Shown: one piece after another, positions 61 through 18,176 of the stretch
Layout of the letters: every line of letters begins with the position of its first letter
Position numbering within the stretch: position 1 is the first letter of the stretch
NCBI RefSeq assembly: GCF_900155945.1
Contig: NZ_FTMN01000006.1
Span: 1 to 64,000, forward strand
Direction of reading: 5' to 3'
Length of the DNA: 64,000 bases
Origin: Marinobacterium stanieri
GTDB taxonomy: Bacteria > Pseudomonadota > Gammaproteobacteria > Pseudomonadales > Balneatricaceae
Program-made: the position numbers and the translations under genes
Notes under the pieces: model-generated
Database searches by the model: none
What the model was told of the DNA's origin: nothing
The model's input: the letters and a program-made list of their open reading frames with translations, nothing else

Positions 61-76
61 CAATTTGTTAAAGAGC
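61..76 (-). promoter_or_regulatory. rrn boxA antitermination site
   Basis: The minus strand reads GCTCTTTAACAAATTG, matching the boxA core GCTCTTTAACA. In the RNA this is bound by NusB-NusE and assembles the antitermination complex containing NusA, NusG and SuhB, which lets polymerase read through the long structured rRNA genes. A suhB gene lies at 15954-16769. Confidence 0.9.
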
Positions 77-129
77 GGGCTTGAGCAACCTGCCGTGTGG
101 CAGAACCTGTTGTCTCAAGCGAGGCGCGT

Positions 130-15953: not shown

Positions 15954-16769
15954 ATGCAACCAATGGTTAATATTGCCCTGCGAGCTGCCCGCACCGCAGG
16001 TGAACAGGTCTCTCGCGCTTTGGAACGCCTTGATTTGATCAAATCCGAACAGGCCGATGTGGCCAAGTTCATCAGTGACCTCTGCCAGCAGGCAGAAGGC
16101 ACCATCGTGACTCAGATCCAGAAGGCTTACCCGCATCACAGCCTGATCGGCGAATACAGCGGCCACCACGCCCCGATCGGTGAAGGCCCCGGTGAATGCG
16201 AATGGCACGTCAGCCCGATTGACAGCCTGACCAACTTCTCCAACGCCCTGCCGATGTTTGCCCTCAGCATCACCGGTTTTGTTAACGGCCGCGCCGAACA
16301 CTGCGTGGTTCTTAACCCCATGTTCGGCGAAGAGTTCACCGCCAGCCGCGGCAAGGGTGCCCAGCTGAACGGCAAACGCCTGCGCGTGAGCAACCGTACC
16401 AGCCTTGAAGGCGCCATCATTGGCACCGGTTACCATGCCCGCAGCAGCGACAAGCCCTGGATCGAATCCCACACCCGCATGATGCAGGAAATCATGCAGG
16501 TTGGCGCGACCCTGCATAACAGCGGCTCCCCGGTATTGAGCCTGGCCTACACCGCAGCGGGTCGCCTGGACGGCTTTTACCAGATCGGCCTCAACAGCAC
16601 CGAGCTCTCAGCCGGCCTGCTGCTGATCCGTGAAGCCGGCGGCCTGGTATCCGACTTCTCCGGTGGCAACCAGTACAACGAGCGCGGCAATCTGATCACC
16701 AGTAACGCCAAACTGCTCAAGGCCCTGCTGCGCACGCTACACCCTGCTACAGCTGAAGGCCTGCGTTAA
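15954..16769 (+). CDS. suhB: SuhB-family protein with degenerate inositol monophosphatase site
   Basis: SuhB is an inositol-monophosphatase-fold protein that also serves as a subunit of the Nus antitermination complex on rRNA operons. This 271-residue copy is clearly SuhB by overall sequence (MQPMVNIALRAARTAGEQ, EEFTASRGKGAQLNG, REAGGLVSDFSG) and by its place beside trmJ. However, the enzyme motifs are changed. GEE(x)G is GEYSG (66-70), D-P-L-D-G-T-T-N is S-P-I-D-S-L-T-N (87-94), and the W-D of the C-terminal metal site is T-E (216-217). The usual metal-site Asp in the TEVD region is Cys44. Phosphatase activity is therefore unlikely, while a structural role remains plausible. Confidence 0.9.
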   Translation: MQPMVNIALRAARTAGEQVSRALERLDLIKSEQADVAKFISDLCQQAEGTIVTQIQKAYPHHSLIGEYSGHHAPIGEGPGECEWHVSPIDSLTNFSNALPMFALSITGFVNGRAEHCVVLNPMFGEEFTASRGKGAQLNGKRLRVSNRTSLEGAIIGTGYHARSSDKPWIESHTRMMQEIMQVGATLHNSGSPVLSLAYTAAGRLDGFYQIGLNSTELSAGLLLIREAGGLVSDFSGGNQYNERGNLITSNAKLLKALLRTLHPATAEGLR

Positions 16770-16805: not shown

Positions 16806-16838
16806 AAAAAAACCGCATCGAAAGATGCGGTTTTTTTT
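16806..16838. terminator. Bidirectional terminator between suhB and purA
   Basis: Stem CCGCATC-GAAA-GATGCGG (16813-16830), flanked by seven A on the left and eight T on the right, so it works in both directions for the convergent suhB and purA. A second small inverted repeat (GGCCTGC/GCAGGCC) lies just upstream at about 16783-16799. Confidence 0.92.

Positions 16839-16856: not shown

Positions 16857-18176
<1,320 letters not shown>

What the first reader, a model, noticed from the sequence alone, without database searches (positions are those of the whole stretch)
15954..16769. SuhB appears to be a pseudoenzyme: most inositol-monophosphatase metal and catalytic residues are replaced
The product is clearly SuhB by overall sequence and by its place divergent from trmJ. 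Yet the IMPase motif D-P-L-D-G-T-T-N reads S-P-I-D-S-L-T-N (87-94), losing the first metal Asp and the catalytic Thr (Leu92). GEE(x)G reads GEYSG, the C-terminal W-D reads T-E (216-217), and the Asp of the TEVD region is Cys44. The reading frame is otherwise intact and of normal length, so this is not decay. SuhB works in E. coli as a subunit of the rRNA antitermination complex, and that role does not need catalysis. This lineage may have kept only the structural role, which would make it a natural separation of the two functions. A boxA-bearing rRNA leader lies at the start of the window.
Basis: partly seen in the sequence, partly recalled or inferred. Interest (0 to 1): 0.72.

Follow-up and report, generated by a model that had tools for sequence, protein, structure and literature searches.

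The report
Clade-wide dead SuhB phosphatase
In a broad group of bacteria the protein SuhB has lost the active site of the phosphatase it descends from, yet it keeps a surface residue known in E. coli to grip the transcription factor NusA, which suggests that its enzyme activity is dispensable and its job in making ribosomal RNA is not.

Summary
The ORF at 15954-16769 is SuhB (best PDB match P. aeruginosa SuhB, E 8e-76), divergent from trmJ; 5 of 7 metal/catalytic residues are replaced (D44C, E68Y, D84S, T89L, D212E). The finding is larger than this gene. In the window's family (it contains Amphritea, Nitrincola, Neptunomonas) I read suhB in 99 of 116 genomes: none keeps more than 4 of the 7 residues. 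In seven more families of the order every suhB read is degenerate too (3 genomes or fewer in five of them); 20 other families keep 7/7. Seven of the eight families form one rpoBC clade, so catalysis was probably lost once, early; the eighth lies elsewhere. The former pocket now varies more than the protein average in the three families tested. K251, part of the double mutant that cuts NusA-AR2 affinity over 1000-fold in E. coli, is K in 93 of 103 (R in 9), and K in 0 of 61 paralogs. NusA keeps two C-terminal repeats in 38 of 38 genomes; median dN/dS in the window's genus is 0.07. Best reading: a dead SuhB kept for rRNA antitermination/maturation. No activity was measured and no structure model obtained. 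My searches of the paper library found no report of it.

The parts
15954..16769 (+). suhB: catalytically degenerate SuhB (IMPase fold family), 271 aa
16083..16085 (+). codon 44: C44 replaces E. coli D44 (role of D44 recalled)
16149..16163 (+). codons 66-70 GEYSG: E67 kept, Y68 replaces E68
16212..16235 (+). codons 87-94 SPIDSLTN in place of DPLDGTTN: S87 for D84, S91 for G88, L92 for T89; D90 (=D87) kept
16599..16604 (+). codons 216-217 T-E in place of W211-D212
16710..16730 (+). codons 253-259 KLLKALL: K256 = E. [quoted passage not shown] coli (PMC6614801)
15067..15825 (-). trmJ (TIGR00050 TrmJ/YjtD family, over cut-off), divergent neighbour used as the synteny anchor
16857..18152 (-). purA (adenylosuccinate synthase, over cut-off), convergent neighbour
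66..77 (-). boxA-like CGCTCTTTAACA near the contig edge, possible leader of an rrn operon beyond the contig (inference)

Best explanation
This SuhB is a pseudoenzyme. It keeps the IMPase sequence framework but lacks most of the residues needed to bind the metals and activate the water for phosphate hydrolysis. It is kept because it is a structural subunit of the rRNA transcription complex: it binds NusA through its C-terminal N-x-K-x-x-K-x-x-L element and from there acts as SuhB does in E. coli (helping NusB/E onto boxA, delaying Rho, assisting rRNA maturation). Catalysis was lost early, in an ancestor of seven families. Shown: the residue losses, their spread, the relaxed pocket, the retained AR2-contact residue and NusA repeats, and purifying selection. 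Inferred: absence of activity, and the rRNA role in these species.
For: Residues. In 99 of 99 family genes read D44 and E68 are gone, and D84 in 98 of 99; the one ortholog read from each of 20 other families keeps 7/7. Of 58 sites at least 97% conserved in the 84-sequence intact set, 21 fall below 40% in the degenerate set and these include all 7 catalytic residues (hypergeometric 4e-4). The 21 residues kept in intact SuhB and in 61 paralogs but lost here also include all seven. Pocket entropy (12 sites): 0.04 bits in 22 intact sequences, but 1.55, 1.77 and 1.95 in f1, f6 and f20, above each family's mean of 1.37, 1.55 and 1.79. K251: K in 98 of 98 readable family genes; K 93, R 9, M 1 of 103 over eight families; K in 0 of 61 paralogs. 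Control K108, whose contact the paper ascribes to crystal packing, is not kept (family-weighted 0.30, against 0.45 in intact). NusA: two repeats in 38 of 38 genomes, 22 of them from degenerate families (in G205, an intact-family genome, the second is below the cut-off). Median dN/dS 0.074 in the window's genus. The own genome's only other family member found is CysQ. rpoBC tree: seven families in one clade, SH-aLRT 98.8, UFBoot 94. In E. coli the suhB growth defect is not seen with IMPase-defective mutants (PMC4807359 passage; PMC6614801 introduction).
Against: No activity or binding was measured, and no structure model was obtained. E67 and D87 remain in the window protein, and D87 is invariant in 99 of 99 family genes, so a residual pocket role is not excluded. 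Four family genes and one of f20 (L236) keep 4 of 7 residues. L254 is L in only 59 of 103, mostly V or I otherwise. R184 is lost throughout. K251 is K in only 75 of 84 intact sequences, so it is not strictly required by SuhB. In E. coli the AR2 contact is dispensable for SuhB to join the complex when nut RNA is present, and the K251/L254 double mutant still partly binds full-length NusA (PMC6614801), so keeping K251 is only indirect support for the rRNA role. Relative to rpoBC, degenerate SuhB evolves about 2.4 times faster than intact SuhB (median ratio 5.40 over 210 pairs against 2.24 over 120), so the protein as a whole is less constrained. RNA, S4, NusG and polymerase contacts could not be checked.
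Confidence: 0.79

Rival explanations
1. Repurposed pocket: the protein kept a working site with a new metal geometry or a new ligand, for example a small-molecule sensor that tunes rRNA synthesis.
For: D87 is invariant in 99 of 99 family genes; C44 (76 of 99), Y68 (62) and E212 (73) are common in this family.
Against: Pocket residues differ between the eight families, and in f1, f6 and f20 their mean entropy is above the family mean. D87 itself is lost in all f27, f37 and f44 genes read and in most of f6 and f20.
Confidence: 0.1
2. Decaying gene on its way out, with no remaining function.
For: SuhB evolves faster relative to rpoBC in the degenerate families; one family gene (G111) shows in-frame stops.
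Against: 114 of 116 family genomes have a match, 110 of them in one piece; dN/dS 0.05-0.13 for the window's seven pairs; SuhB-specific residues are kept over eight families.
Confidence: 0.02
3. SuhB lost catalysis and also left the rRNA complex, and now serves an unrelated binding role.
For: R184 and L254 change widely; most contacts of the rRNA complex could not be tested, and AR2 binding alone is not decisive in E. coli.
Against: K251 and the NusA repeats are kept; M1, P3, L9, R10, A11, R139, R141, G232 and K251 are kept in both intact and degenerate SuhB but rare in paralogs.
Confidence: 0.09

Closest known systems
SuhB of E. coli and P. aeruginosa (Nus factor, inositol-1-monophosphatase)
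   Same: Orthologous by sequence (E 9e-62 and 8e-76), by trmJ linkage in the order, by length, and by the C-terminal NusA-AR2 contact residue.
   Different: Active-site residues lost. It scores 226 bits against the NCBIfam SuhB cut-off of 332, but 112 of 115 genomes of the order also fail that cut-off.
CysQ and other IMPase-family paralogs
   Same: Same Pfam family PF00459.
   Different: The 61 paralogs aligned keep D44, E67, E68, D84, D87 and T89, and 95% keep D212, but mostly lack SuhB-specific residues such as R139, R141 and K251.
IMPase-defective E. coli SuhB mutants
   Same: Growth function kept without the activity (PMC4807359 and PMC6614801 passages).
   Different: Those are laboratory mutants; here most of the site has been replaced by evolution across families.

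Membership tests
SuhB (orthologous group) | Best match among solved structures is SuhB | tested here: met
SuhB (orthologous group) | Divergent from trmJ (a working criterion of mine) | tested here: met
   trmJ found in 35 of 36 loci of G000-G035 (not in L061); 195 loci paired
SuhB (orthologous group) | Over NCBIfam NF008027 cut-off of 332 bits | tested here: not met
   226.3 bits; only 3 of 115 genomes of the order pass it, intact ones included, so the cut-off is too strict for the order
Inositol monophosphatase (enzyme) | D44, E67, E68, D84, D87, T89, D212 (list recalled) | tested here: not met
   5 of 7 replaced in the window
Inositol monophosphatase (enzyme) | Pfam PF00459 domain | tested here: met
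   137.1 bits against 27
Inositol monophosphatase (enzyme) | Measured phosphatase activity | not testable with these tools
   needs purified protein
rRNA antitermination complex subunit | NusA-AR2 contact residues K251 and L254 | tested here: met
   K256 and L259 in the window
rRNA antitermination complex subunit | NusA with two C-terminal repeats in the genome | tested here: met
   two repeats, 66.5 and 65.8 bits
rRNA antitermination complex subunit | Recruitment to rRNA operons | not testable with these tools
   needs ChIP or pull-down

The most novel reading that the evidence does not exclude
A deep clade of Gammaproteobacteria (seven families sampled), plus an eighth family placed elsewhere by rpoBC, runs its rRNA transcription complex with a dead enzyme. 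The residues shared by dead and live SuhB but rare in sister phosphatases (M1, P3, L9, R10, A11, G70, E112, H113, E124, R139, R141, A197, L226, G232, K251) would then be a catalysis-free map of the surfaces that touch NusA, RNA, S4, NusG or polymerase.
Probability: 0.6. Interest if true: 0.8.

Novelty: new variant of a known kind. Interest (0 to 1): 0.72.

Why it matters
The 2016 paper that placed SuhB in the rRNA machinery left open whether its rRNA function is connected to its phosphatase activity (PMC4807359 passage). Here evolution seems to have separated the two over many genera, and the sequence record suggests they are not connected. It also turns more than 150 sequences into a filter that separates catalytic from transcriptional residues, and warns that a gene labelled inositol monophosphatase in these bacteria may not be an enzyme.

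Tried and rejected
Decay or sequencing error: rejected (dN/dS, full-length frames, family-wide recurrence). Residues supplied from shifted positions: I saw no alternative conserved acidic cluster when reading the alignments by eye; no statistical test was made. A second intact enzyme: only CysQ found in this genome; the strict motif D-P-x-D-G-T-T-N occurs in 13 of 116 family genomes, none of them at the suhB position. That pattern is narrow (1 of 61 paralogs from other loci carries it), so it does not count all active paralogs.

One loss or two: rpoBC (2752 columns; 40 genomes and E. coli) puts seven families in one clade and rejects f44 inside it (AU p 0.001). The SuhB tree joins f44 to them (99.9/100; 96.6/99 with pocket columns removed). 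Long branches, transfer or a second loss could explain this; a TrmJ tree was unresolved. Left open. Relations among the seven families are poorly supported in the same tree.

Structure model: five hand-ins met a busy machine; the sixth was accepted but had not finished at the last poll. Fold and pocket geometry are therefore untested and no fold search was run. The promoter and terminator scan found nothing.

Rows dropped. rpoBC: of 44 genomes searched, 40 were used (G139 without a match, G015 split, G193 and G257 not fetched); three of the 40 had no SuhB row. SuhB table: L257 and L173 for frame length and L061 for lack of trmJ (all three read); one duplicate locus for each of four genomes; L014 (trmJ on the same strand); L003 and L271 (no trmJ in the locus); 14 of 76 named loci outside the family (no divergent trmJ found). 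The 17 family genomes whose residues were not read: 2 without a match, 4 in pieces, 11 not fetched.

Full report
What is there. The ORF at 15954-16769 (+) encodes a 271-residue protein with an intact frame. Its best solved-structure relatives are P. aeruginosa SuhB (9j90, 8wdq; E 8e-76) and E. coli SuhB (6ib7; E 9e-62) (the table names the molecules, the species are recalled), and it carries the Pfam IMPase domain (137.1 bits). It is divergent from trmJ and convergent with purA. Identity is 46.8% to P. aeruginosa and 40.5% to E. coli SuhB.

Relative to E. coli: D44C, E68Y, D84S, G88S, T89L, R184N, E205Q, W211T, D212E; E67 and D87 are kept. The roles of these residues are recalled from human IMPA1 and E. 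coli SuhB. The genome search found one other IMPase-family gene, an intact CysQ.

The loss is not local. In the window's family 114 of 116 genomes match a SuhB profile at E 1e-25, 110 of them in one piece. I read the residues in 99: 31 keep one of seven catalytic residues, 64 keep two and 4 keep four; D84 survives in 1 and D87 in all 99. The window's own genus has no name from any call.

In an even draw of 115 genomes of the order, 83 have a SuhB match of 258 bits or more; 25 belong to eight families (f1, f6, f7, f20, f27, f37, f38, f44) in which no match exceeds 229 bits; the other seven genomes have no clear or only a fragmentary SuhB. I read trmJ-linked suhB from these eight families: f1 37, f6 21, f7 2, f20 31, f27, f37, f38 and f44 three each. 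Of these 103, 13 keep none of the seven residues, 47 one, 41 two, 1 three and 1 four. The one ortholog read from each of 20 other families keeps all seven, as do 58 of 62 named loci outside the family. The other four, two Pseudoalteromonas and two Colwellia, have D212 changed to H or N. Pocket alignment in f6 and f20 is the least certain because these proteins are very divergent; the flanking motifs align well by eye.

In a draw of the class, 137 genomes lie outside the order: 123 have a best match of 230 bits or more, 10 are lower (two of these are pieces) and 4 have none at E 1e-23; residues were not read there.

History. In an rpoB+rpoC tree rooted on E. coli, f1, f6, f7, f20, f27, f37 and f38 form one clade (98.8/94) next to intact f2, f21 and f35. 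One early loss is the simplest reading. f44 lies elsewhere (AU p 0.001 against inclusion), but its SuhB groups with the others: a second loss drawn in by long branches, or a transfer.

What selection keeps. In the window's genus dN/dS is 0.05-0.13 for the window's seven pairs, median 0.074 over all 28 pairs; dS is 0.6-1.1, so values are rough. Former pocket positions are nearly invariant in intact SuhB (mean entropy 0.04 bits over 22 sequences) but vary more than average in f1, f6 and f20. Sites kept in intact SuhB and in 61 paralogs but lost here number 21 and include all seven catalytic residues; thresholds, not residue names, selected them. Sites kept in intact and degenerate SuhB but rare in paralogs are M1, P3, L9, R10, A11, G70, E112, H113, E124, R139, R141, A197, L226, G232 and K251 (some differ in E. 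coli itself, for example V9, V113, L124 and I226).

K251 matters because E. [quoted passage not shown] K251 is K in 93, R in 9 and M in 1 of 103 degenerate proteins; K108 is not kept. L254 is mostly replaced by V or I. Each of 38 genomes tested, 22 of degenerate families, has NusA with two C-terminal repeats. Against this, K251 is K in 75 of 84 intact sequences only, and in E. coli AR2 is not needed for SuhB to join the complex when nut RNA is present.

How it most likely works. In E. coli SuhB enters the rRNA complex by NusA and RNA contacts, lets NusB/E load and delays Rho (PMC6614801; abstract, sections 3, 18 and 21 and passages seen). A review describes a SuhB dimer as central to that complex (PMC7819879, passages). 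The suhB growth defect is not seen with IMPase-defective mutants, and the 2016 authors left a link between the two functions open (PMC4807359, passages). The proteins described here fit a subunit that keeps only the rRNA role. The step from sequence to dead enzyme is strong; the step to a kept rRNA role rests on one mapped contact, the NusA repeats and purifying selection.

Novelty. Full-text searches for SuhB with pseudoenzyme, with Marinobacterium, with catalytically inactive and NusA, with Halomonas and inositol, with Oceanospirillales, with catalytic residues and RNA polymerase, and for inositol monophosphatase with pseudoenzyme gave either nothing or listings without such a report; titles and abstracts were seen, and three papers opened (PMC6614801, PMC4807359, PMC7819879). 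The library lacks most subscription papers, so the absence is not proof.

Noticed in passing
window 66-77 (-); places: A boxA-like site sits near the contig edge, and 26 family contigs carry suhB on the + strand 14.6-18.5 kb from a contig start, which suggests an rrn operon about 15 kb from suhB across the family (inference from contig breaks).
   Followed up: partly
L136, L141 (Pseudoalteromonas); L139, L143 (Colwellia): SuhB otherwise intact but D212 is H or N: possible first step of separate losses of catalysis.
   Followed up: partly
G061, G062, G070, G071 (L368-L371): Four same-family SuhB keep E67, D87, T89 and D212 but have lost D44, E68 and D84: the least degraded members read.
   Followed up: no
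families f27, f37, f38, f44 (three genes each) and G012, G019, G020 of f1: E67 is replaced by R in all of these, which may be a shared early step and bears on whether f44 is independent.
   Followed up: no
G290, G295, G296, G310, G312, G354, G378, G383: Low best SuhB scores in other orders, some in small genomes; residues not read.
   Followed up: no
window 16813-16838: By eye a CCGCATC-GAAA-GATGCGG stem followed by eight T's lies after suhB, which the terminator scan did not report.
   Followed up: no
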